The notes under the pieces: generated by a model
The model's database searches: none
What the model was told of the DNA's origin: nothing
What the model saw: the letters and a program-made list of their open reading frames with translations, nothing else
Assembly: GCF_024584785.1 (NCBI RefSeq)
Contig: NZ_CP074112.1
Span: 1,116,001 to 1,180,000 of the forward strand
Direction of reading: 5' to 3'
Origin: Idiomarina loihiensis
GTDB lineage: Bacteria; Pseudomonadota; Gammaproteobacteria; Enterobacterales; Alteromonadaceae
Length of the DNA: 64,000 nt
Shown: one piece after another, positions 23,880 through 64,000 of the stretch
Layout: each line of letters starts with the position of its first letter
Numbering within the stretch: the stretch's first letter is position 1
Translations under genes and position numbers: made by a program

Positions 23880-23954
23880 TTCATACGAACCGCTACTTAC
23901 AGTTAGTTGAGTGACGTAGTCGGGTGCCTCTAGGGAGGCTCACTACGCCAACAT

Positions 23955-24335
23955 TCAAAAATCTGAAAGATAAATTTTTATTGAATTTTTTTCGTCAAAA
24001 TAGACATCGTCGATCTTTGTTGACCTAAATATTAAATTCAAAACCGAGTAATCAATGGACGCCTTTCTAATCCTCAATGATACTTCAGCGCCTTTTTTCG
24101 GCAACGGGAATATTACCCATTCACCTGTTTTAAAATTTGATAAAGTAATTTCTGAAATTTCAGAGCATTTACGGCTATTAGTATTGGAATCAATATTGAC
24201 GACAAATTCTACAAACTCTCCATTTTTTCCATCGTACGATTTATCTATAGTAACGCCACATTCTTTCAATCTATTTGTGTCTGCATTGCATGCAGCAGTT
24301 AGGGTTAAAGCTGCAACTAGAAACAATATCTTCAT
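23955..24335 (-). CDS. Probable lipoprotein immunity protein for Rhs cassette B
   Basis: A 126-residue protein with signal and lipobox (MKILFLVAALTLTAACNADT; Cys 16), so it is probably a periplasm-facing lipoprotein. The start codon overlaps the Rhs B stop as ATGA. The mature part is beta-rich, with no family that I recognise. A periplasmic immunity protein fits a toxin that attacks periplasmic or envelope targets, such as a protease. Confidence 0.7.
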   Translation of the reverse strand: MKILFLVAALTLTAACNADTNRLKECGVTIDKSYDGKNGEFVEFVVNIDSNTNSRKCSEISEITLSNFKTGEWVIFPLPKKGAEVSLRIRKASIDYSVLNLIFRSTKIDDVYFDEKNSIKIYLSDF

Positions 24336-25456: not shown

Positions 25457-25457
25457 A

Positions 25458-25606
25458 ATTCGGCACACGCCGACCAAAAAGAGTTGTTGGAGTTTTTAGA
25501 AACTACCGAAAAGCCATTGCACGACGTACGCTTAGTTCACGGTGAGGCCGAGCCAAAGCGCGTACTGGCTGAAGCAATACGTCAAAGTGGGTTGATTACG
25601 GGGTAG
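25458..25606 (+). pseudogene. C-terminal fragment of a beta-CASP metallo-beta-lactamase nuclease
   Basis: The plus-strand frame reads NSAHADQKELLEFLE ... VRLVHGEAEPKRVLAEAIRQ and stops at 25606. SAHADQ and VRLVHGE are motifs of the C-terminal end of MBL-fold/beta-CASP RNA-processing hydrolases (normally about 450 residues). The 5' side is cut at the junction with Rhs cassette B. Confidence 0.7.
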
Positions 25607-25651
25607 TTACAATAACTCCGAGTCAAGCTGGAAATACAACTAAACATAAAT

Positions 25652-26164
25652 TCAGTCGAATAATCGCCCAACAAAAACATCTTTACCGGGAGAGAATTCA
25701 ACGGAGTATGATCTCCCTCCTGTTCCAAAAACTACAATTCTTACTTGTCCGTCGAGACCGAGGTGAAACTCCTTGACTTTATAATCACTACAAAAATCTC
25801 GATCGCTATTGTCACACCAGCTTTTCAACTTTGAAAGTTTAGTATTGTAAATTTCGAAATTAATATCACCTAACTTGCCAAGATACAGAACTGCTTGTTC
25901 TCTATCTAACTCAGCACATTCGCTGCCAGCAATTTGGGCTTGAAACAATTGAATAGGCTTTGATGATGTAACTCTATTATTATATAACGTTAATATAACT
26001 CTATCCTTCATGCAAAGTCCTTTATGGCTAAAAGATGGGCCATCAACAACCAGACTTTTTTCATGAGAGCCTGTTCCAGAAAATTTAAAATGCTCAATAC
26101 CTTCATCATATGAAGCTGCCAAATGAAATGGCATGAAAAATAAAAAAAGAAGATACTTATTCAT
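25652..26164 (-). CDS. Probable exported immunity protein for Rhs cassette C
   Basis: A 170-residue protein. The start ATG at 26162-26164 overlaps the Rhs C stop by 8 bases and gives a signal peptide (MNKYLLFLFFMPFHLAASYDEG); a longer frame exists upstream but lies inside the toxin. The mature part is beta-rich with a pair of Cys (SWCDNSDRDFC). It has no family that I recognise. Export fits protection from a periplasm-acting metalloprotease. Confidence 0.7.
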   Translation of the reverse strand: MNKYLLFLFFMPFHLAASYDEGIEHFKFSGTGSHEKSLVVDGPSFSHKGLCMKDRVILTLYNNRVTSSKPIQLFQAQIAGSECAELDREQAVLYLGKLGDINFEIYNTKLSKLKSWCDNSDRDFCSDYKVKEFHLGLDGQVRIVVFGTGGRSYSVEFSPGKDVFVGRLFD

Positions 26165-27243
26165 AGCCGTCTTTCCTGTATTGCTGAAACAATCTTTGCA
26201 AGTCGTTATCTGTGAGCTTTCTTTCATGCCCTTCGACATGAGCATAACTTAATAGACTTTTCGTATCGTTATGCTGATGAAGAAGACCTAACATATGGCC
26301 AAACTCATGTGCAGCTGTATTTCTATCTGCGGCCGGTGCGCGCAGCTCTATTAAAGTCGATCCGAGAGAAGCGCGACCAGCATTTCTAAAAGAATTTGCA
26401 GTGCTGCACCATCCGGGGCACTCGTTTATGTAGAAGTCAGGATTCTCTTTGCTAAAAGATACGTCTGTTTTTAGAAGTATTTTATACCCATTTGAGTGAG
26501 TACCTTCAATATTGAAGTGTTCGTTAATACCGGCAATGTAATCTGACAAAAGCTCATGCTCAATATCATTTGTTCCAACTGAGAGCTTAATTTGTAATGT
26601 GTAAGCTTTATTTTTCACATCGACTGTTGTTTTTATTTTTCCTTTAAAATTTATATTAGTATAAACATCATTGGATATATCCGTTGGAGATTTGTCATTC
26701 TGACTGTCAGAAAGTACGTATCCCAGTGCTGGCGCTTGATTTTGACTGCCAATATCAGCAACTTGCATCTGTTGAACTAAATCCGTCAGTTCACTTGGTT
26801 GTGCACCATTACCTACGGTATTGCTCGCACTGTCGTTTTGCCGCGGCTTCGATGAGATGTCCGTGGTGGCGTTTTCAAGCGCTGTCATATGAGGACACAT
26901 CGAATCCGCCATTTGTGATACCCCACAGCCACTATAGCCCGTGGGGTCGGTTCCCGCCAGTGGGTTGTTCATCAGGTAGGAATACGGGTTTAAGGATTGG
27001 CTGTTGCCCGGGCTTTGAATCACCGGGTCGACGCTTAAGAAGCGACCTAGGTTATAGTCGTACACCCGACCATTCATATGAATGAGCTCAACATCATCCA
27101 AATGCAGGTGATCGGTAAAGCCGCGGCGAGTGATACCGATATTACTGATACCTGCATAGTCAGTAAAGTTTTTAAGGCGCGGCCGTGCCCCAGGCTCCAT
27201 CAAAGAGCCATCTAGCATTCGCGGTTTACCAAAGGCGTCGTAG
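26157..27243 (-). CDS. Orphan Rhs C-terminal cassette C with metzincin-type protease tip
   Basis: The Rhs core begins abruptly at the junction near 27243 (YDAFGKPRMLDGSLMEPG) and shares about 440 bases with cassette B, including the PTGY core end. The tip, from about residue 140, is new. It contains NTAAHEFGHMLGLLHQHND, that is HExxHxxGxxH, the zinc motif of metzincins, followed by a Met-lacking turn LLSYAHVEGHERKL. FYINECPGWCSTANSFR has two Cys that could form a disulfide. An exported immunity gene overlaps its end. Confidence 0.8.
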
Positions 27244-52884: not shown

Positions 52885-53233
52885 CCTGCTTTTTGCAATT
52901 TAATAAACTTCAGTCTAACGTCATTTTAGCGCATGTCAAATATCATTCTTCTTTACTTTATAGCGTTCGGCCCATGGAAAAATGTTGATAAATAGCTAAT
53001 TCACTTTAACCAAAGCAACAAGTATAGCTTTTCATCTCTGATCAGAAGCACGAATTTATTTGCCACTACACGTTCACAAGTTGCAGACCACTATAGCTAT
53101 GTTCAACGTGTTAAGCGAGTATTGGGCATAGCCAAAAAGTTAAAAGATTCATTTGTGAAAAAGCTTTCAATCAAAAAACTAAAGCTGAAGTTTTAGTAAC
53201 AAGGTAAGTAACACGCTTGAATCTTGATATTTT
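52885..53233. other. Spacer upstream of the copper operon with an unassigned open frame
   Basis: A plus-strand frame without a start codon (about 52992-53196) reads VADHYSYVQRVKRVLGIAKK and ends KKLSIKKLKLKF. It may be the C-terminal end of a lost gene. I see no known family. The promoter of the copper operon should lie near 52885-52960, but I see no clear metal-regulator operator. Confidence 0.35.
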
Positions 53234-53268
53234 TTATCCACTATAAAACAATAAGTTATTAGATCTTA

Positions 53269-53289
53269 TCGATTCCGCCTCCGGCACCA
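53269..53289 (+). other. tRNA-Leu 3' end remnant (attachment site of the truncated integrase)
   Basis: TCGATTCCGCCTCCGGCACCA matches the T-arm/acceptor end with CCA of a tRNA-Leu (GCCGGAG acceptor type). It lies within the last codons of the integrase, the usual place for an att core carried by an element. Confidence 0.65.
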
Positions 53290-53340
53290 TTATTGATAAG
53301 GCCTCGCTAGAAATAGCGGGGCTTTTCTTTTTCTGGCTTT

Positions 53341-53366
53341 GTACCAGATTTGTACCAGTTGTACCA
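53341..53366. repeat. GTACCA direct repeats beside the integrase att site
   Basis: GTACCA at 53341, 53352 and 53361, close to one helical turn apart, about 55 bases from the tRNA-Leu remnant. They look like arm-type sites of this integrase and encode part of its C-terminus. Confidence 0.55.
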
Positions 53367-53857
53367 TCCACATTGCCCGCCACCCGTTTCAAATGATGAC
53401 TCGCAAGATGAGCGTACCGCAGTACCATCTCATACGATGACCAACCGCCAAGCTCCTGCAACTCTTGTAAGCTTGTGCCGCGTTGAACATGCCAGCTTGC
53501 CCATGTATGGCGTAAATCGTGCCTACGAAAATTTTCAATACCCGCTCGTTTTAACGCTGCATGCCATGCTTTGGTTGATGTGCGCTCAACTGGTTTGCCT
53601 TGATACACAAAACAATAGTGAACATCGTCGCCCTGCACTTCTTGCAACACCGATAAAGCATCGTTATTGAGTGGCACGTTTATCGCCTTTCCTGATTTTG
53701 ATTGATCAGGATGAATCCACGCAAAACCACGTTCTAAGTCCACTTGATCCCACCGTAGATAACTCACATTCGACTGACGCAAACCTGTAGCCAGTGAAAA
53801 TTGAGCCATCAACCGCAGATGCTTAGGTAACTCATTCAATAAACGTTGTGCTTCATC

Positions 53858-53891
53858 GTGTAATCCCCCCGATTTTTCGGGGGGATTACAC
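53858..53891. repeat. Perfect palindrome at the integrase truncation point
   Basis: GTGTAATCCCCCC, 8 bases, GGGGGGATTACAC. The same end, GTGTAATCCCCCC, borders the IS3 fragment at 28413-28425, and AATCCCCCCATTTTA occurs at 28417 and 63211. It may be two abutted mobile-element ends. Confidence 0.8.
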
Positions 53892-53927
53892 ATTGGCTGT
53901 AGGAAAAAGATTACGGATAAAGTTAGC

Positions 53928-54110
53928 TTAGTATGTGCTCGTTGATTTAGGCTGCAAGGTTAACGTTAAACCAAGTGCAGATGCCACCTTAGCGATAGTT
54001 GAAAATGTCGGATCTCCATCAGATTCCTCCACGCATGCATCCAAATATGCTTGAATGGCTTCGTCATTATCGAGGTGTTGTGTGTATGTAACTACCCCGG
54101 GGTTTGTCAA
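53928..54110 (-). pseudogene. HigA-like addiction-module antidote with internal deletion
   Basis: 60 residues. The N-terminal part (QHLDNDEAIQAYLDACVEES) and the C-terminal part (DPTFSTIAKVASALGLTLTL) match the two ends of the antidote family (about 95-100 residues), but the middle segment, including the helix-turn-helix, is absent. No toxin gene is adjacent. Probably a non-functional remnant. Confidence 0.6.
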
Positions 54111-54258
54111 CTGCAGTTAACAACCTGTGCGTTGACACGAGGTTTGAAGAGTATGGTTAGTTGGTAAAAGTGGCAAACGTAATATTGTGTAGGATAAAAA
54201 CTTAATAGTTAAAATTCGACGAAGCTATGTCCGCTGTGTGCCATTAAGAGACATTCAC

Positions 54259-54474
54259 TTAGCTCTTACAACAACTTTGGCCTTCTTGAATTGGTGGGCA
54301 TTTCACTGTTCCATAAGAGCAGTATACACAACAATCGCCCTTCAAAGGCTTTAGGAGAACTTTGCAAGATTCACATTCATAATACCACTGGCAAGCGTTG
54401 GTTGACATTTCTTCGGTTTTACTGAAACCGCACTCAGGGCAAGTAATGGTAGAATTTAACTCTATACCTCGCAT
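54259..54474 (-). CDS. GDCCVxC-domain cysteine-rich protein of mercury operons
   Basis: 71 residues, ten Cys. Pattern: TCPECGF, CQWYYECESC, GDCCVYCSYGTVKCPP and a C-terminal SCC. This is the GDCCVxC family found in mer operons, of unknown exact role, probably handling Hg or thiols in the cytoplasm. It overlaps the merC end by 13 bases. Confidence 0.82.
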   Translation of the reverse strand: MRGIELNSTITCPECGFSKTEEMSTNACQWYYECESCKVLLKPLKGDCCVYCSYGTVKCPPIQEGQSCCKS

Positions 54475-54851
54475 GTTTGCTCCTTCAAAGGTTTAACAAT
54501 GTCCAATACGGACATTACAATCATCAAACAAATACCCACATAGAACAAATAAGTGCTCCAGTCATATTGCCATAGTGGATAGAGGGTTAACAAAACAGCT
54601 ATAGGCCCAATAACTCCAAGAGTACCTCTCGTATGATTTTGGTTTTTATACCAGTTATACAAATTTACCAACAACGCCAAAGTTGCAAATATAGGTAACA
54701 AGGTATTTACAGCAATCCCCTCAAAGTGAGAGAGAAAGCCTAATCCCAATGCTGATGCTAATGAACCGAGAGCAGGGAAACACCCCGTACAACTGAGGGC
54801 TGCAAGCCAAACACCACCTGAGCCAACTTTATCTAAAATCTTATTAATCAT
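54462..54851 (-). CDS. merC: MerC-family mercury transport protein
   Basis: Inner-membrane protein of 129 residues with four helices and CTGCFPALGSLASALGLGFL, the Cys pair used by MerC/MerT-type proteins. It takes up Hg(II) into the cytoplasm in complete mer systems. No merA reductase is seen nearby, so uptake here would need another detoxification step. It starts just beyond the MerR operator. Confidence 0.85.
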   Translation of the reverse strand: MINKILDKVGSGGVWLAALSCTGCFPALGSLASALGLGFLSHFEGIAVNTLLPIFATLALLVNLYNWYKNQNHTRGTLGVIGPIAVLLTLYPLWQYDWSTYLFYVGICLMIVMSVLDIVKPLKEQTCEV

Positions 54852-54882
54852 TTTTAACGCCTAACATTATTTGAATGACTTG

Positions 54883-54914
54883 AGTGTAAACTCCGTAGAT
54901 AGGTACGGAGTCAA
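54883..54914 (-). promoter_or_regulatory. MerR-type operator and promoter of merC
   Basis: On the minus strand: TTGACT, then the dyad CTCCGTA-CCTATC-TACGGAG, then TTACACT. The spacing between -35 and -10 is 19-20 bases, longer than the optimal 17, as expected for promoters activated by MerR through DNA twisting. It lies between the merR stop and the merC start. Confidence 0.88.
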
Positions 54915-54916
54915 TG

Positions 54917-55294
54917 CTATTTTAGCGAATCGATTATTGGGCAGTGAGATTGGTCGTTATTGTTGCGGCATGAATTAGTCATTTCTTTTATGACGACTTC
55001 TAAGCGTTGAAGGTCAGCTATCTTACTTTGAATTAAGCTCAGTTTCTGCAAACCTAGAGATTCAACTTTGGCACAATCGCCATCCATTGACATCAAAGAC
55101 GCTACTTCCTTTAGAGTAAAGCCAAGTGCTTTAGCCTTACAAATGAATTGTAATTGCTTGGTGATTGAGTCGTCATACACACGATAACCATTTTGAGGTT
55201 TTTGAGGTTGTTTTATCAAGCCTTCTCGCTCATAAAAGCGTATAGTTTCTACGCCTAAACCAAGTTCTTTAGCCAACTTGCCTATTGTTTTCAT
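54917..55294 (-). CDS. merR: Mercury-responsive regulator MerR
   Basis: 125 residues. HTH IGKLAKELGLGVETIRFYEREGLIKQPQKPQNGYRVYD (residues 3-42), then a dimerisation helix, and three Cys in DGDCAKVESL, NSCRNNN and SHCPII, which match the Hg-binding set of MerR. It lies upstream of merC on the same strand, with the operator between them, unlike the divergent Tn21 layout. Confidence 0.88.
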   Translation of the reverse strand: MKTIGKLAKELGLGVETIRFYEREGLIKQPQKPQNGYRVYDDSITKQLQFICKAKALGFTLKEVASLMSMDGDCAKVESLGLQKLSLIQSKIADLQRLEVVIKEMTNSCRNNNDQSHCPIIDSLK

Positions 55295-55429
55295 CGTATA
55301 ACCACAAAATCAGCCTACTTCATGACATTAGTATATCAATACGATATAAAATTTCTCGAACTAATAATGACCGCTTCTCGCTCTTAGCAGACCACAAAAT
55401 TGCCCTGTCAGGCGGCTTCGTGCCAAGAG

Positions 55430-55516
55430 CGGACGTTAATGCCGTCAACACGCGCGGCTTTGTAGTGGAGGCGCAGCCACAAAGGAAAAGCTGTCGTCGT
55501 GATTGGCCTTGTTAAC
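55430..55516 (-). other. attC-like site 1 (3' of cassette gene 55512)
   Basis: On the minus strand it starts TTAACAAGGCC at the gene stop and ends near GGCATTAACG, with inverted arms CAATCACGACGAC/GCCGCGCG region only loosely paired. Less regular than the others; it marks the array end next to merR. Confidence 0.45.
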
Positions 55517-55976
55517 TGCTGGCATTTTCGAGCAACTTTTTCACTACAGTTTCTAAATAGTCAGGTTCTGGAAAAAGCGATTTGGTATAAAGCCAGTTTC
55601 GGCGTGGCCCTATTGTGAATGTGCCAGTTCTTGCTTTGTAACCAGGATTCACATGATAGGCTTCTGAGTCAAGAATCGCCTTGGCTTCGGTTTTTGAAAG
55701 AACCCATTGAGGACCACCTTTTCCTGGTCTGGTGTCATCAATTCGACAGGAAAGGCCTTGATCTGTAACCGCCAACCAAGTTTTCTGTTTAGATGTCCTA
55801 AACACAAGAATTTCCCGAAGGCTATCCTCTGCTTCATTATCCGAGGCATTCTCAGGTTCCGCCTCTTCCTGCTCTGGTGCTCTAAGATATGTTCGGTACG
55901 CCAATACAGCCATCACAACAGCAGTCACGGCTGTAACGATCTGTGTAATCACTTGTGTCCAAACAGGAAAACTCAT
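55512..55976 (-). CDS. Cassette gene: membrane-anchored hypothetical protein
   Basis: 154 residues: one N-terminal helix (VITQIVTAVTAVVMAVLAY), an acidic linker (APEQEEAEPENASDNEAEDS), and a soluble C-terminal domain of about 95 residues. I do not recognise the family. It is bounded by attC-like sites on both sides, in cassette orientation. Confidence 0.65.
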   Translation of the reverse strand: MSFPVWTQVITQIVTAVTAVVMAVLAYRTYLRAPEQEEAEPENASDNEAEDSLREILVFRTSKQKTWLAVTDQGLSCRIDDTRPGKGGPQWVLSKTEAKAILDSEAYHVNPGYKARTGTFTIGPRRNWLYTKSLFPEPDYLETVVKKLLENASS

Positions 55977-56003
55977 TTAGATAAATTTCTCTCTACTATT
56001 GAG

Positions 56004-56124
56004 GCAGTTAACGCCGCAAACATGGGCTGGCAGAAGTGTCACGTAATTGCGAATGCAATTTAAGTGACGCTTTTGACAGTCCAGCGCAGCTTTGCTGTGC
56101 GACATGCTTTGCCTTGTTATGCGC
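56004..56124 (-). other. attC site 2
   Basis: Minus strand: CGCATAACAAGGCAAAGC at one end and GTTTGCGGCGTTAACTGC at the other, with self-complementary arms (GCAAAGC/GTTTGC; ATTGCATTCGCAAT near the middle). The TAA stop of the gene at 56117 is within the TAACAAGG core. Classical attC layout. Confidence 0.8.
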
Positions 56125-56578
56125 TGACAGCATCTGTTCTGACTTTGGTTTTGGTGTAGTTTATTGGTGGGTACTCACCGTGATTCTGAAAGTACCACCA
56201 CAAAAATTGTCCTTCAGCACCCAGCAGAGTGTCGCCAAACTTACGATAATCACAAAACGCGATCTCTATTGCCCCATAATTTCTTATTATCATATCAAAT
56301 TTCAACGAGTTAGCCTTTGACGTGGCATGCAGGTTTGCGTGGCGGAAATATCTGGACTTGAAACTGGTCTTTGTTTGGCCTATGTAAAGTATGTTGCTCT
56401 CGCCATTGAGGCGAGGCACAGGTTTTGAGGACAAGAAAAAATAGATTATGTTTTTTGCCTGAGCAGCAGCTTCCGTGTCATAAACACTTTCAAAGGCGGA
56501 CTTTGAGAGCTCATTGATTCGGCCCGGTAGACGCTCAAAATTGCTCACAAGAGATGGCAAGTCATGCTTTGTAATCAA
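56117..56578 (-). CDS. Cassette gene: GIY-YIG nuclease-like protein
   Basis: 153 residues with a helical N-terminus and a GIY-YIG domain: NIIYFFLSSKPVPRLNGESN, ILYIGQTKTSFKSRYFRHA and GAEGQFLWWYFQNHG (Glu in the metal site region). The Gly-Ile-Tyr motif is replaced by I-Y-F, so activity is unsure. It begins 2 bases after the end of the 56581 gene, so this is a two-gene cassette. Confidence 0.75.
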   Translation of the reverse strand: MITKHDLPSLVSNFERLPGRINELSKSAFESVYDTEAAAQAKNIIYFFLSSKPVPRLNGESNILYIGQTKTSFKSRYFRHANLHATSKANSLKFDMIIRNYGAIEIAFCDYRKFGDTLLGAEGQFLWWYFQNHGEYPPINYTKTKVRTDAVSA

Positions 56579-56580
56579 AC

Positions 56581-56931
56581 TTACTGCTCCTCACCTGAAT
56601 GATCTGATAAATGGGTAGACCCGTCAGGCAACCATTCAATACTCAAGTCGCCACCACCAAAACGAACAATCCCTTCTTTTTTCGGCAACTCATTACATCG
56701 GCCTCGGTGTGCAATAAAATCATCGAGAAGCTCGAGCAGATGCAGCTTAAAACCAGACTCCGTAACCTGATCGAAAATATCCTCTTCAAGTGTCCAAGAT
56801 GTACCACTCAAGCGGTCTTCATCATCTTCTGCACGGAAAACCACCTCACCTGTAACTTTAACAATGTCTGAATGCTGTTTGGCCAGCGAGGCAAGACGTG
56901 CAGCTTCAAAATTTTGATCGAAATTCGACAT
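56581..56931 (-). CDS. Cassette gene: hypothetical protein, partner of GIY-YIG gene
   Basis: 116 residues, acidic, with no signal or helix. No family is recognised (VTGEVVFRAEDDEDRLSGTSW, DLSIEWLPDGSTHLSDH). It is translated just upstream of the GIY-YIG gene, so the two may act together. Confidence 0.6.
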   Translation of the reverse strand: MSNFDQNFEAARLASLAKQHSDIVKVTGEVVFRAEDDEDRLSGTSWTLEEDIFDQVTESGFKLHLLELLDDFIAHRGRCNELPKKEGIVRFGGGDLSIEWLPDGSTHLSDHSGEEQ

Positions 56932-56949
56932 ACCTTTTCCTTTATGATC

Positions 56950-57029
56950 ATTGCTCTTTCAGCTTACGCGAGCTTGCGAGCGTCGGGCGACCGAAGGGAG
57001 CGTACTTGATGGCTTGGTTATGCATATTA
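56950..57029 (-). other. Degenerate attC-like site 3
   Basis: Minus strand: GCATAACCAAGCCATCAAG at the stop of the gene at 57027, then GCTCGCAAGCTCGCG. The distal GTTA core is not clear. Position and first half fit an attC. Confidence 0.45.
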
Positions 57030-57587
57030 TAGGTCTCCTGCGTCCTGAACTATTTCAGACCAAGATTTATCGGAATGCCACTCGTCGTACTTTACCATCA
57101 TTGGCAAGTAATGCTCTGGAATGTCTGATTCCGGTGCGTTGCTATACACATACGCCATACCTTCTCTAAACCATTCAGGTTTCATCATGGTCGAAACAGG
57201 GCCAATTTCATAAAATTGGAACCAATGAACCAATTCGTGCTGAGTGATGTAGCGCTGCCACGATTCAGGAGCTATAACCGTACCGAGAAACGGATAAGAA
57301 ATCGCTCGCTCATTTCCTCCACCAAACGACTGGTAGCACTCTGCAGTAGAGCAATAAACAAACGTTGGGCTAGCTCTAAGTGGAAGTTGAGCTGCAGAGA
57401 TGTTCGTTACCGCAGAGCCATAAAGCTCAATAGCTTGATACATCCCACTCGTATCCTCCACGCACACTGAGCCGTTGCACGTCACTCCATTTAAATGAGG
57501 CAGAAGTAACCTTAACGGCTTTGCATATGACCAAGCGAGCGCTGGAATTGACGCAATTACTAAAACCAGAAATAGTTTTCGTATCAC
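57027..57587 (-). CDS. Cassette gene: exported HExxH zinc-peptidase-like protein
   Basis: 186 residues with a signal peptide (MIRKLFLVLVIASIPALAWS) and ITQHELVHWFQFYEIGPV, an HExxH zinc motif, followed by PEWFREGMAYVYS with a Glu that could be the third ligand (gluzincin spacing). Two Cys pairs (TCNGSVC, CSTAEC) could form disulfides. A periplasmic or secreted metalloprotease on a gene cassette. Target unknown. Confidence 0.7.
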   Translation of the reverse strand: MIRKLFLVLVIASIPALAWSYAKPLRLLLPHLNGVTCNGSVCVEDTSGMYQAIELYGSAVTNISAAQLPLRASPTFVYCSTAECYQSFGGGNERAISYPFLGTVIAPESWQRYITQHELVHWFQFYEIGPVSTMMKPEWFREGMAYVYSNAPESDIPEHYLPMMVKYDEWHSDKSWSEIVQDAGDL

Positions 57588-57600
57588 ACTGAGTCCTTAT

Positions 57601-57678
57601 GCATAACGCCCGGCTCACGCGCCGGCTTGGAGCCGCAAAGCGGCGGAAAATCGGTCGCTGTGCAGCCGATTGTTATGC
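57601..57678 (-). other. attC site 4
   Basis: Minus strand GGCATAACAATCGGCTG ... GAGCCGGGCGTTATGC. Pairs: CATAAC with GTTATG, and AATCGGCTG near CAGCCGATT-type complement within the first arm, CCGGCGCGTGAGCCGG inside. The TAA of the gene at 57673 opens it. Confidence 0.85.
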
Positions 57679-58476
57679 CAGAAGTTCCGCGAAATCAACG
57701 GCAAACTCCTGTTCCAAAAACTTTATAGTTTCTGGCTGACCATCCAACGAGGCTCGGATGAGCTGCGAGGTAAACAGCCCACTCTTTGATTTCCACTTTG
57801 CCTCGTTTCGCGGAACAGTCCTGATCCAGTCGACGAGTGCGACATACTCCGACTTATCGAGATCGTTCGAGTTTTCTGCAATATTTGGGCATACCAGCTC
57901 ATGCTGCAAAAGTGGGATACCGCCTACCAGAACGTCACGCACCGGCCGAGCGCTTTGAGTAATTTGGCCAACCCCAACAAAACCGTGGCGCTTGAGATAT
58001 GCTGCGACAAAATCCCCTGTCTGCAAACCTAGCATTGCATCCCGGAATCTTGGTGCCTGACCTGCGGAGATAAACCCATGGGAAACGTAGTCATCCCAGT
58101 TGCGATGCACACCTTCCCCTACGTTGTAATAATATAGCCCATTTTGAAAATCGAACCCCGAAAGGTATTTGTGTAGGGAGTCATGCGGACGGAAATTGTC
58201 TGCATAATGGCCCGAGGATATATTCGTTAACTGCTTACCCAACTTCCAGAGTAGCGTCTTCTCAACCAGCAGCGCATCGTGCTCAGATAGATTGCGAGCA
58301 ATAACCCTGATTATTGGCTCCAACCCTTCTTTCTTGATGGCCTTTATCCGCCGGGATTTTTCGCTATCCGAGTCGTCATTCAGGTGAGCATGTTTACGGG
58401 AGCCTTTACCTTTTCCAAAGTAAAACTCCTCGAAATTTCTGGGATCAATGTAAACGTAGACGTAATAGTTACTCAT
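57673..58476 (-). CDS. Cassette gene: LEM-3-like GIY-YIG domain fused to an EVE/PUA-like domain
   Basis: 267 residues. Residues 1-95 fit a GIY-YIG fold of the LEM-3 type (YYVYVYIDPRNFEEFYFGKGKGSRKHAHL, EKTLLWKLGKQLTNIS). Residues 105-190 (LYYYNVGEGVHRNWDDYVSHGFISAGQ, LQTGDFVAAYLKRHGFVGVGQIT) look like an EVE/YTH-type pocket that can read modified bases. A nuclease joined to a modified-base reader would suit defence against modified phage DNA; this is inference. Confidence 0.7.
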   Translation of the reverse strand: MSNYYVYVYIDPRNFEEFYFGKGKGSRKHAHLNDDSDSEKSRRIKAIKKEGLEPIIRVIARNLSEHDALLVEKTLLWKLGKQLTNISSGHYADNFRPHDSLHKYLSGFDFQNGLYYYNVGEGVHRNWDDYVSHGFISAGQAPRFRDAMLGLQTGDFVAAYLKRHGFVGVGQITQSARPVRDVLVGGIPLLQHELVCPNIAENSNDLDKSEYVALVDWIRTVPRNEAKWKSKSGLFTSQLIRASLDGQPETIKFLEQEFAVDFAELLA

Positions 58477-58487
58477 AACACCTTAGG

Positions 58488-58603
58488 GCATAACGTCGTG
58501 CTAAGCCGACCGAACCGAGAGTGTAACACAGCGCGTACAATGGCGAAGCCATGCGCTGTGTGGAGCGTAGGTGAAGGTTCGGCTTGAGCACCTTGTTGGG
58601 TGC
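58488..58603 (-). other. attC site 5
   Basis: Minus strand GCACCCAACAAGGTGCTCAAGCCGAACC ... GGTTCGGTCGGCTTAGCACGACGTTATGC. Long self-complementary arms (AAGCCGAACC with GGTTCGGTCGGCTT) and an inner stem (GCGCATGGC/GTACGCGC). Nearly the same as sites 6 and 7. Confidence 0.9.
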
Positions 58604-58925
58604 TTTGCGCACTAGGAACCACTGCCCCACCAAGAAGCCCTGAACTACCCTACTTTGAAGATGTACTACAATGGCCAAATTGAAGAAGGGGTGTACGCGC
58701 CGCTTGCCCAACTTACGCGAACCACCAGAAAAGCTTGATAAAATGGTTAACACTGAAAAAACCTACGCCCTCATTTCAAACTCTTCAAGCCGAGAATTTC
58801 AACGACAACCTTCCTTTAAAACGCGCCGGAAACGATATACCAAAGACCACAGAAATAATATCGTTCGCGCAAAGCCTTCACTGAACTCTGACGACTAGAA
58901 AACAAAATTTAGAATGTTTTACCTA
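58604..58925. other. Cassette between attC 5 and 6, no clear gene
   Basis: About 320 bases. The only open frame of note is on the plus strand (58671-58898, MAKLKKGCTRRLPNLREPPE), opposite to the usual cassette direction, without a ribosome binding site and rich in basic residues. I do not count it as a gene. Could be a toxin-like or non-coding cassette. Confidence 0.4.
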
Positions 58926-59042
58926 CACCCAACGCCGTGCTAAGCCGGCCGAACCGAGAGTGTAGCACAGCGCGTACAATGGCGAAGCCATGCGCTGGGC
59001 GGAGCGTAGGTGAAGGTTCAGCTTGAGCGTCTTGTTGGGTGC
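58926..59042 (-). other. attC site 6
   Basis: Begins GCACCCAACAAGACGCTCAAGC on the minus strand and ends GGCTTAGCACGGCGTTGGGTG. Over 90 per cent like site 5 by eye. CACCCAAC and GTTGGGTG are exact complements. Confidence 0.9.
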
Positions 59043-59380
59043 CTGCCAGTTAGAACCTACCCACTTCCAGCGAACTAACTTAGCCTTGCAAAGACTGGCA
59101 CGCTTTTAGGCTGCTTGCGATGTGAAACCCCAAGGACAGCTAAAGTATAGAACACCGTTTTTTGCGGGAACACCACTGTTTTGCAAATGAAAATAAACAC
59201 GGCTTGTGAACTGGTACGACGACGATATTCGCCGCTCTAACTTAGGTTAACCCTGTTCCCCAACCTGCAGGAAAGATAGCTTTGGCCCTCTGACTTCCGT
59301 TATTAAAAACGTTCTCGCCTCGAACCACCACGATTAATAATGCCAGGCTTCTGCACATTTAGAACCAAGATGTTTTTTTA
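59043..59380. other. Gene-less cassette between attC 6 and 7
   Basis: About 340 bases without an open frame of note in any frame. Some cassettes carry promoters or RNAs. No specific structure recognised. Confidence 0.55.
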
Positions 59381-59499
59381 CACCCAACGCCGTGCTAAGC
59401 CGGCCGAATCGAGAGTGTAGCACGGCGAGATATAATGAGCGAAGCGAACCAGCCTGCGCAACGTAGGTGAAGGTTCGGCTTGAGCACCTTGTTGGGTGC
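59381..59499 (-). other. attC site 7
   Basis: Same ends as site 6 (GCACCCAACAAGGTGCTCAAGC to GGCTTAGCACGGCGTTGGGTG), with a different inner loop (GGCTGGTTCGCTTCGCTC). It lies 7 bases beyond the stop of the ion-channel gene. Confidence 0.9.
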
Positions 59500-59505
59500 A
59501 TACCA

Positions 59506-59937
59506 CTAACGCTGATCCCAGTGACGCTGCATTTCGAGATAGAGAAACGAAGCTGTCCAAGTAATAAGTACCAACCCTGCTATTGACTCAATGCCTGTAA
59601 GATAGCGAATATACCCTAAAGGCTCAATATCACCAAAGCCGACTGTTGTGTAAACCGTAAACGAAAAATATACGCAGTCCAACAACGTACCATCAAAATT
59701 GCCTTCTAAACTACCCCAACCCGAACCTTGAGATTTAAAATAGTAACCTAAAGCAAAAATCCATATTTCTATAACATGAGCAATCAAGGCGCCAAAGACT
59801 CCGAAAACTATCCGTAGGCTATGAGCGAAAGTAAAACGTGGTAGGATTTTAACGATCTGGTGCAATATGCCGTAATGCACCATGACCACTACGGCGACAA
59901 GCAAACTATTGATTACAAACGCGAGAAGCAACTGCAT
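59506..59937 (-). CDS. Cassette gene: two-helix potassium-channel-like protein
   Basis: 143 residues. Hydrophobic segments at about 1-25 (LLLAFVINSLLVAVVVMVHYGIL), 40-65, and 105-135 (GIESIAGLVLITWTASFLYL) flank a pore loop with the selectivity filter YTTVGFGDIEPLG. This is the Ion_trans_2 type. A channel borne on a gene cassette may act as a membrane effector or in ion balance. Confidence 0.82.
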   Translation of the reverse strand: MQLLLAFVINSLLVAVVVMVHYGILHQIVKILPRFTFAHSLRIVFGVFGALIAHVIEIWIFALGYYFKSQGSGWGSLEGNFDGTLLDCVYFSFTVYTTVGFGDIEPLGYIRYLTGIESIAGLVLITWTASFLYLEMQRHWDQR

Positions 59938-60366
59938 TACAAATTTACCCAGAAATTACTGTGATCTACTTTAGCACCCAACATTTGTATATTGTGCGTG
60001 CGCATTTAGAAACTCGTCCAATTGACGGTTTTCGGTTCTTAACTTACTGATCAAGCAGGCATTCCTGACTTGAAAAGTCCCGAGTTAGCAAAGGCTATTT
60101 GAGAATGCTCAGTTACACTCTACCGAGCGCACAATATCCAACCTTCATTTTTTGTTATGTCACTGACAGTAAACGACTTAAATACACAACACAACAACAA
60201 AACGCGTAATATTGCCGACGTGAATGTGCCGTGCACCGCTAGCAACACCCACACTGACGAATAACGGAACGGCTAGTCACTAGTTGGAGTAGGCTGAAAG
60301 TCAGAAGGTCCGCTGTTCGCTCATTCGAGCCCGGCAAGCCAGAATTAGGAATGCATGATAACCCTA
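59938..60366. other. Spacer without recognised gene
   Basis: About 430 bases. AGGTCCGCTGTTCGCTCATT at 60306-60325 recurs with 2 changes at 60945-60964, so the pair flanks the next GIY-YIG cassette. No open frame of note. Confidence 0.45.
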
Positions 60367-60434
60367 GCCATAACGTTCAAAAACGCAGTTAGATAACAAC
60401 GCTATTAATCTTTAACTTTGTTGGCTTGTTAGTG
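60367..60434 (-). other. attC-like site 8
   Basis: Minus strand CACTAACAAGCCAACAAAG ... CGTTTTTGAACGTTATGGC. The TAA of the GIY-YIG gene opens it. Short (about 68 bases) with a weak inner stem. The last site of the array on this side. Confidence 0.6.
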
Positions 60435-60896
60435 ATTATCGAAGTTATTGTGAGGGGTTCCTAAACTTACAGAAACGTACATCTCTAAAAGTGCCTGTCG
60501 CATTGGTTCCGGTTCGGAAACGTAGCGTACATGCATCTCCCTCACCCTCTTTTTCTGTTTGATAAATTCAGGACCAAACGTAGCATCTAACTCTAAATTC
60601 GCACGTGAGCCATCGGTAACATATGTCGCCTGTGTGATTCCGGTAATTTCTCGCGTAAGCCTAAAAGCAAATGTAGCTGAATTATGTCCTGAACTTGGCC
60701 GACAATGATTCTGCAAACGCTTTCTTATTGTATTTGTTCTGCCAACGTACAGATGTTTACCATTCTCTGAAAACAGATAAATACCGGACTGTGGGATTTC
60801 CTTTGGCAACGTTGCAACCGTGACTGGTTTCATATTTAGAAGTTGTTGGAAAGATGGTTCTAGTGAATCAATGTACTCTTTAAAAACTGGATGCAT
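60429..60896 (-). CDS. Cassette gene: GIY-YIG nuclease-like protein
   Basis: 155 residues. After a helical N-terminus, SGIYLFSENGKHLYVGRTNTIRKRLQNHC is a standard GIY-YIG start with Arg in place, and GSRANLELDATFGPEFIKQKK carries the Glu. Related proteins are widespread single-domain nucleases of unknown role. Confidence 0.82.
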   Translation of the reverse strand: MHPVFKEYIDSLEPSFQQLLNMKPVTVATLPKEIPQSGIYLFSENGKHLYVGRTNTIRKRLQNHCRPSSGHNSATFAFRLTREITGITQATYVTDGSRANLELDATFGPEFIKQKKRVREMHVRYVSEPEPMRQALLEMYVSVSLGTPHNNFDNH

Positions 60897-61216
60897 TTTT
60901 AATTATCCTAGCATTTTTAAAACAAAAGTTAGCACGAATATTGGAGGTCCGTTCTTCGCTCATTGCTGACCTTCAGCTAAACCCCGACTTTAGTAGTCGT
61001 TTTTAATTTAGCCACTCGAGAGTCTTCCCTTGCATTTCAGTCATTGTTTAGTAAGAATAACTGAGCAAGGATTAAGTACGTTTCGATTAATAGCCCGCCA
61101 AACTATTAGTCATTGAATAGGCACTCCAAATGGGCGCCTATTCAAATCTCCCCAAACCGCATTTCATTAATCAACCTAAGCAGTACATTACGACCATAGG
61201 TTGTTTGCATTAAAAG
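60897..61216. other. Spacer without recognised gene
   Basis: About 320 bases. GAATAGGC (61115-61122) and GCCTATTC (61136-61143) form an inverted repeat with a 13-base loop, without a T-run. The second AGGTCCG-type repeat is at 60945. No gene seen. Confidence 0.4.
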
Positions 61217-61600
61217 TCAAGGTTGTGTTTGCTCTAACGCTCTCGCCTCACTGTTTAACCACATGAGCAATATGTCGCGACGGCCATCAAAAAAAGCCAG
61301 TAATTTACACCATGTTCGCACAAGATAAAGCAACGTGTCTGATTGCGAAACGTTCAACTTTATCTGATTTGCCACTTTTAACTTAATTGTACGCTCAGTC
61401 AAACCGAGCGCATCAGCAATGAGAGTCAAAGGAATGAAATGTTGTAGCGAGTCAATCACGCAAGCATCAATCCCATCTCGCAACTCTTGCTGCACCTTGG
61501 ATGCCGGAAGGGTGATTCTTGCGCAAGAATCACCTGGAGCAAGATTAACAAACCACTGGCTCAATGAACTCGTGTTTTCTTCCGTTGATACAGTGTTCAT
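61217..61600 (-). CDS. Xre/MbcA-type orphan antitoxin-like protein
   Basis: 127 residues. IPLTLIADALGLTERTIKLKVANQIKLNVSQSDTLLYLVRTWCKLLAFF resembles the DUF2384 (MbcA/ParS) pattern: helix-turn-helix followed by a serine-turn and long helix. It ends LMWLNSEARALEQTQP, about 20 residues short of usual partners, and no RES toxin is adjacent. It may be a regulator on its own. Moderately sure of the fold. Confidence 0.5.
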   Translation of the reverse strand: MNTVSTEENTSSLSQWFVNLAPGDSCARITLPASKVQQELRDGIDACVIDSLQHFIPLTLIADALGLTERTIKLKVANQIKLNVSQSDTLLYLVRTWCKLLAFFDGRRDILLMWLNSEARALEQTQP

Positions 61601-61720
61601 TCTATTCCCCCCGCTTAGCTTCTGCGAGATTGTAGCGTCAATTTTAAAATATGTTACTCATGTTAACCATAGCATCAATTTCTAAGACTAAATTTACTGA
61701 GTATCGATTGGAGAAATCAC

Positions 61721-62152
61721 ATGGGGATTATGATCACGGTTGCGTTTGTTATCATGGTTATTGGCTATCTAATTGGCAAAGGCGACGTTGCTGCAAAACG
61801 CTCGCCGGACCTGCTCGCTCCTGTACCTATCAAAAAAACTGGTGACCAGCTTAACGGTACGACCACACGCCTCTTAAGCTCGGATATCCTGAGGTTATAC
61901 GATTGTGATGATGAGCCAACACCGCACCTTTGCCACTCTTATTGGAGAAACCACCGTTTCAGTCATCACTCAGTGATGCATCACGACTTACTCGACCCAG
62001 CCAACCTACTCTCGCCCTTCAATCCAGTAAATGTTCAGTCAGGGTTTCATGACGACATGTTCACGCACAGATTGAGTGATGACGGCATCTTCAATAGCAG
62101 TATCAATAATGACTCATTCAGCTCATTTGACTCACATAGCCCATTTGATTAA
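61721..62152 (+). CDS. Membrane-anchored hypothetical protein
   Basis: 143 residues: one N-terminal helix (MITVAFVIMVIGYLIG), then a hydrophilic part rich in His, Ser, Asp and Phe (PTPHLCHSYWRNHRFSHHSV) ending in repeated S-F/N-N-D units (NSSINNDSFSSFDSHSPFD). No family recognised. It starts 121 bases after the divergent 61217 gene. Confidence 0.5.
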   Translation: MGIMITVAFVIMVIGYLIGKGDVAAKRSPDLLAPVPIKKTGDQLNGTTTRLLSSDILRLYDCDDEPTPHLCHSYWRNHRFSHHSVMHHDLLDPANLLSPFNPVNVQSGFHDDMFTHRLSDDGIFNSSINNDSFSSFDSHSPFD

Positions 62153-62260
62153 CCGCCCTGCAGCGCCCTACTTTTTGGCCCTGCCAATCAGTAGCGCCAA
62201 TATCGAAACATGCTAGCGTGGTTCTGCATAAGTTATTTTAATCACCAAGGAGCCACAACT

Positions 62261-62971
62261 ATGCACTACTCAAAAACCGTATTCGATAAGGCATTCGCTA
62301 ATGCTGACAATGTCCAATGCCTGTTTGATATGCAGCATCAACTGATTGCGTTGGTCGACAACCACCAGCAAATTTTAGGCGCGCTTCTGTTCGAGCTACG
62401 CGATGACAAATACGCTCAAATCGAAGCCCTTGCGACTGCTACCGAGAAAAAGGGTTATGGCTACCGTTTATACCTGTCTGCACTTGCTGCTCTTGCACCT
62501 GGCATGCAGCTTATACCTCAGGCGCTCCAAGACAGCGATGTCTGCTTAGATATTTGGTACAAGCTTTACATGGAGCCGGATACCATCAAGACATCGCTCA
62601 ACGGCACCAAGCATTATCATTTTGACTGGGATGCCACCTACTCTCACGAACTTGCGGGCCTAAATCCCGATATTATTTGCGAGCAATGGGAGGCTTGGGA
62701 GCTCACCGACGATATCTACACCCAAGTGCACTCAGGTGAATTGAATCCACATCCATCCAATGTCTCATTTACACTGCCTGAGCAACGCCGCGCACAAATT
62801 GTCAAAACGGTAACGCCTTATGTGTTTACCGCAGCGCAAATTACCGCGCTAAACGGTTGCTTACAGCTCGACTACGAATCGCTTGGCAGCCCCAAAGCAG
62901 ATACCTTACGACAAGGCGTGACACTACCTGGCAGCAGCGTTACTTCTGCGTTAAAAGTGTGTGCTGCTTAA
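62261..62971 (+). CDS. Hypothetical protein with possible GNAT-like part
   Basis: 236 residues from ATG 62261 (AAGGAG upstream). The N-terminal 100 residues resemble an acetyltransferase-like fold (GALLFELRDDKYAQIEALATATEKKGYGYRLYLSALAAL). The C-terminal part is unassigned. A hairpin terminator follows directly. Fold assignment is tentative. Confidence 0.55.
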   Translation: MHYSKTVFDKAFANADNVQCLFDMQHQLIALVDNHQQILGALLFELRDDKYAQIEALATATEKKGYGYRLYLSALAALAPGMQLIPQALQDSDVCLDIWYKLYMEPDTIKTSLNGTKHYHFDWDATYSHELAGLNPDIICEQWEAWELTDDIYTQVHSGELNPHPSNVSFTLPEQRRAQIVKTVTPYVFTAAQITALNGCLQLDYESLGSPKADTLRQGVTLPGSSVTSALKVCAA

Positions 62972-62996
62972 TTTTCGCCATCCGATACAAACAAAA

Positions 62997-63020
62997 AACG
63001 GAGGCAGTCGCCTCCGTTTC
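62997..63020 (+). terminator. Intrinsic terminator
   Basis: AAACGGAGGC-AGTC-GCCTCCGTTT, a 10-base stem just after the gene at 62261. It also lies beyond the end of the minus-strand gene at 63042, so it can act for both. Confidence 0.88.
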
Positions 63021-63041
63021 ATATTAAATTCATGCACGCAA

Positions 63042-63206
63042 CTATGACGTTGCCTCTTGCCGTTCAATGACTTCGTTCTGTGCCTCAATGGCTTTATCAA
63101 TTACCCGAGCATACACACGCTTCTTCTCACGCGATTTTGCATTTCGCACGAATTCTGACAGGTTCGAGTTATAAGTTGCTCTCGGTTTTGGTAGCCAACT
63201 GAACAT
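63042..63206 (-). CDS. Small hypothetical protein
   Basis: 54 residues: MFSWLPKPRATYNSNLSEF ... SREKKRVYARVIDKAIEAQNEVIERQ. Basic then helical, no cysteines. It reads like a small regulatory or plasmid-type protein; no family recognised. Start ATG 63204-63206. Upstream, 119-170 bases away, lie two related palindromes. Confidence 0.5.
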   Translation of the reverse strand: MFSWLPKPRATYNSNLSEFVRNAKSREKKRVYARVIDKAIEAQNEVIERQEATS

Positions 63207-63324
63207 CACCAATCCCCCCATTTTATGTCGTCAACTGGTGCTAATTATAGCACTCAACAATGCACTAACAGATCGCAACTAACCCACAAATCTGCATACC
63301 TATGCAAACCCCAAAAATACAAAT

Positions 63325-63373
63325 AGCATGAAATCATGCTTTTTCAGCACTCAAATTAGCATGATTTCATGCC
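63325..63373. promoter_or_regulatory. Paired palindromes, possible operator
   Basis: AGCATGA-AA-TCATGCT at 63325-63340 and AGCATGA-TT-TCATGCC at 63358-63373. The same palindrome twice, centres 33 bases apart (three helical turns). Looks like two dimer sites for one regulator. Confidence 0.6.
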
Positions 63374-63520
63374 AAAACCATGTGACCAAGTTTGCCGCGA
63401 CCATGCTAATTTACCTTAATTGATCTTAACTGGCGTTCGGGGTCGATATCGCTGAAAGCCTTATATATCAAGGGTTGCAAAGCAACGTACATTAAGGTAT
63501 AAATACAGAAATTACCCCAG

Positions 63521-63539
63521 ACTACCTTGACATGGTAGG
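63521..63539 (+). repeat. Attachment core, right end of the 36-kb island
   Basis: ACTACCTTGACATGGTAGG, identical to 27525-27543 in the tRNA-Val. Flanks differ on both sides, as expected for an att junction. Confidence 0.85.
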
Positions 63540-63552
63540 AGTTACTTAATTA

Positions 63553-63825
63553 TTAAGGCCACTTCATAGCCGCATGTAGGATTCGTAAAATTCTAAGGGC
63601 GTCCTTACTGAAATCGTACACGACAATATAGTTTGCATGCACTACAAGCTCTCGAGTTCCAAGAACCCGTCCTTCACGGCCTATTTCTGGATATTCAGAC
63701 AGATTTGCTACGCTTGACGAGACTTGATTATCTAGTTGAAGCGCCGCTACTGGGTTATCATTTTCGATAAAGTCATAAATTTGCTCACGATCCCGAATAG
63801 CTTAAGGAGTCCATTGCACAATCAT
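63553..63825 (-). pseudogene. RelE/ParE-type toxin with early in-frame stop
   Basis: The frame from ATG 63823-63825 reads MIVQWTP, then TAA at codon 8, then AIRDREQIYDFIENDNPVAA ... IGREGRVLGTRELVVHANYI ... ILHAAMKWP. The body fits RelE/ParE toxins of about 90 residues. The start overlaps the antitoxin stop (ATGA). The nonsense codon should silence the toxin unless translation restarts downstream; no ATG follows nearby. Confidence 0.8.
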
Positions 63826-64000
63826 CGTTGCTTATCGATGTTACGCTGCGTTAACGCTCTGCGTGCCGCAAACTTAGCCTCAACGTCACCCGCTGGAACC
63901 AAATTCCCAGCGTTAGCAGAATCAAGCCCTTGCTTCACTTGCTCCCTAAACCAGCTATCGTGCTCAGCCAACCGCTCTTGTTGCTGAACGTACTCACGCA
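63822..64000 (-). CDS. Antitoxin of the RelE/ParE pair, C-terminal part (runs off window)
   Basis: The frame open from the window edge reads REYVQQQERLAEHDSWFREQ ... GDVEAKFAARRALTQRN and ends DKQR. The DSWFREQV and AGDVEAKFAARRA pattern is common in antitoxins upstream of ParE toxins. It overlaps the toxin start by 4 bases. The N-terminal DNA-binding part is outside the window. Confidence 0.65.
   Translation of the reverse strand, partial: REYVQQQERLAEHDSWFREQVKQGLDSANAGNLVPAGDVEAKFAARRALTQRNIDKQR

What the first reader, a model, noticed from the sequence alone, without database searches (positions are those of the whole stretch)
57673..58476. GIY-YIG nuclease fused to an EVE/PUA-like reader on a cassette
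The chain joins a LEM-3-type GIY-YIG to a domain resembling EVE, which binds modified cytosines in other proteins. This would be a one-gene modification-dependent restriction enzyme, mobile on a cassette.
Basis: inference. Interest (0 to 1): 0.7.

Follow-up and report, generated by a model that had tools for sequence, protein, structure and literature searches.

The report
Integron-borne GIY-YIG nuclease with EVE-like reader
A small mobile gene cassette in a bacterium encodes a DNA-cutting domain joined to a domain shaped like known readers of chemically modified bases, so it is probably a one-gene defence enzyme against viruses that disguise their DNA, although what it recognises has not been measured.

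Summary
The ORF is real: 57673-58476 (-), 267 aa, GIY-YIG nuclease (~1-96) plus a second domain (~111-265). The nuclease aligns with PD-T4-3/CMoRE, a proven 5hmC/5ghmC-dependent GIY-YIG enzyme (Z 11.3, 34% identity), but CMoRE's own sensor is not detected. The same reader occurs on NucS-like nucleases (PADLOC PDC-S11). The gene fills one 887-bp integron cassette: homology to Oceanimonas and Marinobacter DNA begins and ends at its borders. Neighbours of its relatives are rich in defence genes. Best reading: a single-gene type IV restriction enzyme, a CMoRE-type nuclease with an exchanged sensor. Not shown: cleavage, phage protection, or the modification read; two positions stressed for the EVE prototype are not aromatic here, so '5mC/5hmC' is unproven. 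Reader-plus-GIY-YIG enzymes and defence cassettes on integrons are known kinds; this family is a new variant.

The parts
57673..58476 (-). CDS, 267 aa: GIY-YIG nuclease + EVE-like reader
58189..58476 (-). GIY-YIG nuclease domain (residues 1-96); Y5, Y7, Y19, R27, E72, N85 conserved; acidic stretch 33-39
   Evidence: Pfam PF22945; PD-T4-3/CMoRE match; residue counts
58147..58233 (-). linker, residues 82-110; pLDDT below 50 in the model
57682..58146 (-). EVE/YTH-fold (PUA superfamily) reader domain, residues 111-265
   Evidence: 10-residue pLDDT blocks 84-98 up to residue 260, last block 76; Z 11.5 to 1wmm, 11.4 to VcaM4I 6yex_B, 9.2 to 2eve; PDC-S11 C-terminal match
57601..57677 (-). attC-type site of this cassette (GGCATAAC...GTTATGC); overlaps the stop codon
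58488..58602 (-). attC-type site of the preceding cassette; its presumed crossover point is the 5' border of this cassette
   Evidence: repeat family shared with 58924-59048 and 59379-59505; stem fold; not found by the script
57607..58493 (-). the mobile cassette between the two presumed G|TT crossover points, 887 bp, holding this one gene
   Evidence: homology to L034 covers window 57599-58494 and to L035 57601-58494, with no other match between window 53001-64000 and those loci

Best explanation
A single-gene, type IV-like, modification-dependent restriction enzyme carried as an integron cassette. Inferred mechanism: the EVE-fold C-terminal domain binds duplex DNA, flips out a modified base and holds it; the protein probably works as a dimer or higher oligomer, as CMoRE does; the GIY-YIG domain, joined by a ~29-residue linker and perhaps held back by an acidic stretch, then cuts near the modified site, so the DNA of a phage with modified bases is destroyed while host DNA is spared. 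Shown here: both domains and their predicted folds, conserved catalytic residues, the same reader on another nuclease type, cassette mobility, defence genes near relatives. Inferred: DNA as ligand, base flipping, cleavage, oligomer, self/non-self rule, and which base is read.
For: Nuclease: PADLOC PD-T4-3 E 3.6e-14; phmmer to 9u75 E 7.1e-8; Z 11.3, 2.4 A, 84 residues, 34% identity to 9u75_A; profile comparison with six PD-T4-3-like proteins E 8.3e-24 over residues 3-96. Catalytic-type residues Y5, Y7, Y19, R27 in 21 of 21 rows with letters and E72, N85 in 22 of 22. CMoRE was shown by its authors to cut 5hmC/5ghmC DNA and block T-even phages (PMC12923530, abstract, results and discussion read). 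Reader: aligns over 109-267 with EVE and YTH structures, among them VcaM4I (Foldseek 1wmm E 2.7e-4). The same reader sits behind a NucS-like domain in other proteins (NucS_C at E<=1e-3 in 7 of 10 scanned). The 22 GIY-type readers lie on one side of a 100/99 branch. Neighbours of relatives: 157 and 109 PADLOC models hit among 74 and 67 ORFs, against 2 models (3 matches) among 82 control ORFs.
Against: No biochemistry. Foldseek's TM-score over the whole chain is low (0.28 to 9u75) because the second domains differ, and the domain orientation is unknown. EVE-prototype positions W26 and Y82 are not aromatic here. The acidic stretch is shorter than CMoRE's loop (gap of 8) and holds only 2 acidic residues in 4 of 21 rows. 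YTH domains, among the best fold matches, bind RNA. PADLOC counts are of models, not of loci or systems; of 20 neighbours scanned singly, 15 had no hit; the control covers hosts of the first ORF set only.
Confidence: 0.62

Rival explanations
1. A nuclease acting on modified RNA (tRNA or mRNA) in an abortive-infection response: the EVE/YTH-fold domain reads an RNA modification and the GIY-YIG domain cuts the RNA or nearby DNA.
For: Many of the listed fold matches are YTH domains that bind m6A in RNA.
Against: The nuclease half is closest to CMoRE, a DNA enzyme that acts by direct defence, not abortive infection.
Confidence: 0.12
2. A restriction-like nuclease whose EVE-fold domain reads plain DNA sequence or structure (ends, branches, replication forks) rather than a modified base.
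For: The prototype EVE aromatic positions are replaced; LEM-3-type GIY-YIG enzymes act on unusual DNA structures (recalled).
Against: A sequence-reading nuclease without a protecting methyltransferase in its cassette would attack its host (the cassette holds this one gene). R125, W127 and aromatics at 135 and 235 are kept in 25 of 25 reader rows, as expected of a ligand site.
Confidence: 0.14
3. A DNA repair or housekeeping nuclease that happens to ride on cassettes.
For: GIY-YIG proteins include UvrC-type repair enzymes; a GIY-YIG cassette ORF in an Aeromonas integron was described by its authors as of a type engaged in recombination and repair (PMC10609294, passages).
Against: Patchy distribution (full-length hits in 5 of 59 genomes searched as relatives, own included), near-identity across genera that ends at cassette borders, defence genes near relatives.
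Confidence: 0.07

Closest known systems
CMoRE / PD-T4-3 (PDB 9u75, 9u7u; PMC12923530)
   Same: Single-gene GIY-YIG nuclease at the N-terminus, three-tyrosine GIYxY-YIG motif, acidic stretch, linker to a C-terminal domain; nuclease domains are homologous.
   Different: The C-terminal domain shows no profile similarity to that of six PD-T4-3-like proteins (E 0.17, probability 0.4%) and has an EVE/YTH fold, whereas the authors found no homologue for theirs. Acidic stretch shorter. Their types II-IV carry an extra domain that the text read does not name.
VcaM4I, EVE-HNH restriction enzyme (PDB 6yex; PMC7897488)
PDC-S11 (PADLOC candidate; NucS-like nuclease + reader)
   Same: Same reader domain (E 2.7e-34, residues 112-260).
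   Different: NucS-like domain of ~200 aa in place of GIY-YIG. I found no experimental function: two papers name it; passages of one were read, the other was not.
GIY-YIG-EVE fusions predicted by Bell et al. 2020 (PMC7641849)
   Same: Architecture class as described: EVE fused to GIY-YIG with a predicted type IV role (passages and section 9).
   Different: Individual proteins are not listed in the text read; whether this family is among them could not be checked.
wH-GIY-YIG enzymes Ahi29725I, Apa233I (PMC11037411)
   Same: GIY-YIG nuclease plus a modification reader, type IV-like enzymes (abstract and passages).
   Different: Winged-helix reader of 6mA; other domain order.
Integron cassettes with anti-phage genes (Darracq et al. 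2025, as told in PMC12409362)
   Same: Small defence genes carried on cassettes; type II and IV restriction genes reported to be reduced in size in integrons (passages).
   Different: Whether this family was among those tested is not known to me; the primary paper was not read.

Membership tests
CMoRE / PD-T4-3 | N-terminal GIY-YIG domain of the PD-T4-3 type | tested here: met
CMoRE / PD-T4-3 | GIYxY-YIG three-tyrosine motif, catalytic Arg and Glu | tested here: met
   Y5, Y7, Y19, R27 in 21 of 21 rows with letters; E72 in 22 of 22; aligned to the CMoRE chain
CMoRE / PD-T4-3 | inserted acidic loop over the active site | tested here: inconclusive
   acidic stretch at 33-39 with 2-4 D/E in 21 of 21 rows with letters, about 8 residues shorter than in CMoRE; its place over the active site was not examined
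CMoRE / PD-T4-3 | CMoRE C-terminal modification-sensing domain | tested here: not met
CMoRE / PD-T4-3 | 5hmC/5ghmC-dependent cleavage | not testable with these tools
   needs biochemistry
   AlphaFold model, residues 109-267: Z 11.5 to 1wmm (3.0 A, 121), 11.4 to 6yex_B (3.1 A, 126), 9.2 to 2eve (3.7 A, 126); YTH domains score nearly as well (about 9-10), so EVE and YTH are not told apart; weak profile support, E 2.9e-4, probability 41%
EVE-domain restriction enzyme (VcaM4I kind) | match to Pfam EVE PF01878 | tested here: not met
   no hit at E<=1 for P0001 or at E<=0.01 for any of 22 members
EVE-domain restriction enzyme (VcaM4I kind) | base pocket residues (W26, Y82 in 2eve; P24, W82, Y130 in VcaM4I) | tested here: inconclusive
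   position of W26 (extended by hand) is Ile/Leu in 25 of 25 rows; no conserved aromatic in 177-209 of the GIY-type rows; F/Y235 in 25 of 25 is a candidate. By elimination W26 is not conserved in VcaM4I either.
EVE-domain restriction enzyme (VcaM4I kind) | HNH nuclease domain | tested here: not met
   GIY-YIG in its place
PDC-S11 | C-terminal reader | tested here: met
PDC-S11 | N-terminal NucS-like nuclease | tested here: not met
   GIY-YIG in its place
integron gene cassette | bounded by attC recombination sites and mobile as a unit | tested here: met
   homology to Oceanimonas and Marinobacter DNA ends at the cassette borders
integron gene cassette | array next to an integron integrase gene | tested here: not met
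   the one integrase match over the cut-off (270 bits with its neighbour in the frame, but without model residues 61-147) is at C1:2471069-2471743, about 1.3 Mb away; an N-terminal half (1-163) is about 0.58 Mb away; near the array there is only a background-level match (E 7.6e-4) at window 53372-53587

The most novel reading that the evidence does not exclude
A distinct class of base readers with the EVE/YTH fold but without the usual aromatic positions serves as an exchangeable sensor for at least two nuclease superfamilies (CMoRE-type GIY-YIG and NucS-like), reads a phage DNA modification other than 5mC/5hmC, and is spread between bacterial genera as a self-contained integron cassette.
Probability: 0.28. 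Interest if true: 0.68.

Novelty: new variant of a known kind. Interest (0 to 1): 0.5.

Why it matters
It suggests that the sensor of a proven GIY-YIG anti-phage enzyme can be exchanged for an unrelated reader fold, with the same reader also paired with a second nuclease type, so specificity could be compared directly across natural chimeras. If active, it is an 804-bp, one-gene, naturally mobile restriction enzyme, with a possible new reader of modified DNA bases and a concrete test for the candidate PDC-S11.

Tried and rejected
My first attC script printed nothing. A relaxed one found the downstream site and one further up the array (59382-59497), but also a likely false site at 53807-53947, gave counts of 2, 2, 0, 0, 0 in five shuffles (both strands counted), and missed the upstream site of this cassette; so I rest the cassette on the homology borders. 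The same script on relatives gives mostly hairpins far from the gene.

Rejected: homing endonuclease (all 20 phage matches cover only the GIY-YIG half, 32-35% of the query); direct CMoRE membership (sensor differs); PDC-S11 membership (nuclease differs). The hhalign scores to housekeeping EVE proteins are weak (probability 24% and 41%); the fold claim rests on the structure match.

Full report
WHAT IS THERE. The ORF at 57673-58476 (-) is intact, 267 aa. Pfam sees only a LEM-3-like GIY-YIG domain (residues 18-99, E 1.2e-9). PADLOC sees two halves: PD-T4-3 on residues 3-95 (E 3.6e-14) and the C-terminal part of PDC-S11 (profile 206-356 of 358) on residues 112-260 (E 2.7e-34).

THE FAMILY. One scan of genome contigs gave 27 loci that encode a relative, out of 49 stretches that matched a pattern. 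Of the 25, two are broken in frame (L047, L056), one lacks its start at a contig edge (L055) and one lacks the last ~23 residues (L054). Hosts include many Pseudomonadota and MAGs labelled Verrucomicrobiota, Planctomycetota, Cyanobacteriota, Acidobacteriota, Balneolota, Myxococcota and Thermodesulfobacteriota (labels; MAG labels can be wrong for mobile genes). For alignment A3 I dropped L032 and L033 (near copies) and L047 and L056 (broken): 22 rows with the window's protein, 59-97% identity to it, 38 invariant columns.

NUCLEASE. The closest solved relative is PD-T4-3/CMoRE (9u75): phmmer E 7.1e-8, Z 11.3 with 2.4 A over 84 residues at 34% identity; against six PD-T4-3-like proteins the profile E is 8.3e-24 over residues 3-96. 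Its authors showed a type IV enzyme that cuts 5hmC and 5ghmC DNA, blocks T-even phages by direct defence, and needs the tyrosines of a GIYxY-YIG motif (PMC12923530; abstract, results and discussion read). Here Y5, Y7, Y19 and R27 are kept in 21 of 21 rows that reach them, E72 and N85 in 22 of 22. An acidic stretch (residues 33-39; 2-4 acidic residues in the 21 rows that reach it) stands where CMoRE has its longer autoinhibitory loop.

READER. The model (30-row alignment) has mean pLDDT 82.1 and pTM 0.62; ten-residue blocks from 111 to 260 run 84-98, the last 76; residues 82-110 lie below 50. VIA-align places 109-267 on EVE and YTH structures: 1wmm Z 11.5 (3.0 A, 121 aligned), VcaM4I 6yex_B Z 11.4 (3.1 A, 126), 2p5d 11.0 (3.0 A, 120), YTHDC1 6zda 10.1 (3.8 A, 133), 2eve 9.2 (3.7 A, 126); Foldseek gives 1wmm E 2.7e-4, TM 0.61 by target length. 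That 1wmm and 2p5d are EVE-family proteins is recalled. Profile comparison with seven EVE proteins of this genus and order is only suggestive (E 2.9e-4, probability 41%; E 8.1e-4, 24%) and aligns the GD..Y...GIVG core. Extending it by hand without gaps puts the prototype's W26 (numbering as) at Ile136, which is Ile or Leu in 25 of 25 reader rows; the region of Y82 has no conserved aromatic, though at 182 all 7 NucS-type rows have Phe and all 18 GIY-type rows Val. Positions aromatic in 25 of 25 rows are 115, 116, 127, 135, 144, 166, 217 and 235, and R125 is invariant. So the fold is of the EVE/YTH kind, the known pocket residues are not in place, and the ligand cannot be named.

The same domain ends 350-390-aa proteins with a NucS-like domain in front. 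In Pfam NucS_C matches 7 of 10 scanned at E<=1e-3, of which only L024, L058 and L090 reach the curated 24 bits; three had no hit. Such proteins are annotated as DUF91 or NucS on some plasmids. On plasmids 62 records match the query, one over at least 80% of it; of the 30 listed, 28 match only from residue 96 on. In a tree of 36 readers the 22 GIY-type ones are one side of a 100/99 branch in 100% of bootstrap trees, so one fusion or swap is enough, provided the root lies outside them.

THE CASSETTE. Minus-strand attC-type sites lie at 58602-58488 and 57677-57601, each folding into a long stem; the stop codon overlaps the second, and the ATG comes 17 nt after the presumed crossover. BLAST of window 53001-64000 against the Oceanimonas locus gives a single match, 58494-57599 (93.6%), and against the Marinobacter maroccanus locus a single match, 58494-57601 (91.5%); against Pseudidiomarina donghaiensis the long match (99.9%) ends at 57599, after which the next cassette differs. 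The gene is 100% and 99.9% identical to two other members of the genus, 93.7% to Oceanimonas and 92.9% to M. maroccanus, while pheS is 80%, 80%, 74% (over 668 of 981 bases) and 69% (over 567). This is horizontal movement of one cassette. No integrase lies beside the array: in this genome the one match over the cut-off, at C1:2471069-2471743, lacks model residues 61-147, and an N-terminal piece lies at C1:1752954-1753439; the 14 control genomes all give sub-threshold matches, so the other matches are background. Of six other host genomes tested, five hold a full integrase over the cut-off, on contigs other than that of the gene. Not every relative is a cassette: among the 21 loci whose flanks I printed I read attC-like sequence beside the gene in L032-L035, L039 and L042, by eye; a script agrees for L032-L034. 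The genus is inferred: G385 and G380, of the same genus as the window, share contig lengths with L032 and L033 (P. donghaiensis).

NEIGHBOURS. From 23 of 25 loci (L032 and L033 left out) I sent 141 of 184 neighbouring ORFs to PADLOC at E<=1e-10: 157 models hit among 74 ORFs and 109 among 67, the best 25 of each being listed. They include type I, II and III methyltransferases, type III and methyl-directed restriction enzymes, Old, CBASS cyclase, phospholipase effector and capP, and Shedu. In the control, 82 of 84 ORFs from ten arbitrary stretches on the same contigs in ten of these genomes hit 2 models, three matches in all; these ten are hosts of the first set (10 of its 11 loci), none of the second. 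Models are redundant, so this is no count of systems. Scanned singly, 5 of 20 neighbours (5 of 18 loci) hit: type I methyltransferase (L041), PD-T4-6/mads_6-like (L042), type I restriction enzyme (L045, which also has an Old-like ATPase, E 2.8e-22), type III methyltransferase (L050), NERD-UvrD (L051); 15 had none.

HOW IT PROBABLY WORKS. All functional steps are inferred. That integron cassettes carry anti-phage genes, and that type II and IV restriction genes in them are reduced in size, is reported in passages of PMC12409362, which cites Darracq et al. 2025; that paper I did not read.

NOVELTY. GIY-YIG enzymes with modification readers are known or predicted: CMoRE, wH-GIY-YIG (abstract and passages) and GIY-YIG-EVE fusions in a 2020 survey. 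My nine searches of the paper library listed no paper that I could recognise as describing this family; apart from the papers named here I saw listings only, and no supplementary files. It is a new variant of a known kind.

Noticed in passing
window 60429-60896 (-) and 56117-56578 (-): Two further GIY-YIG-like ORFs near the same array: PF01541 E 2.8e-7 for the first, and E 0.017, below the cut-off, for the second.
   Followed up: partly
window 58492-58603, 58931-59042, 59379-59505: Three similar attC-type repeats (78-93% to one another over the reported stretches) about 440-455 bases apart, enclosing short cassettes without an obvious long ORF.
   Followed up: no
window 57027-57587 (-): Next cassette: 186-aa ORF with a HELVH metalloprotease-like motif (motif recalled) and no Pfam hit; a similar sequence follows the gene in L032 but not in L033.
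   Followed up: partly
G000 C1:2471069-2471743 and C1:1752954-1753439; G425 C5:53420-54031: Integron integrase matches that lack the middle or the C-terminal half of the model, in this genome and in Pseudidiomarina donghaiensis, although both carry the same cassette.
   Followed up: partly
window 22237-27218 (-): Three ORFs share an RHS-type core end (label recalled) with different C-terminal tails, as in sets of exchangeable tips.
   Followed up: no
L047 and L057: One alphaproteobacterial MAG (Biocath_Alpha_33) holds both a frame-broken GIY-type copy and a NucS-type protein with the same reader.
   Followed up: no
   Followed up: partly
L023 (Lichenihabitans psoromatis plasmid): A 56%-identical copy whose match begins at residue 21, directly after an IS3-family transposase gene, as if the insertion had replaced its start.
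   Followed up: no
window 53234-53893 (-): 219-aa tyrosine recombinase-like ORF (weak integrase match, E 7.6e-4), possibly shortened, between the metal-resistance genes and the cassette array.
   Followed up: no
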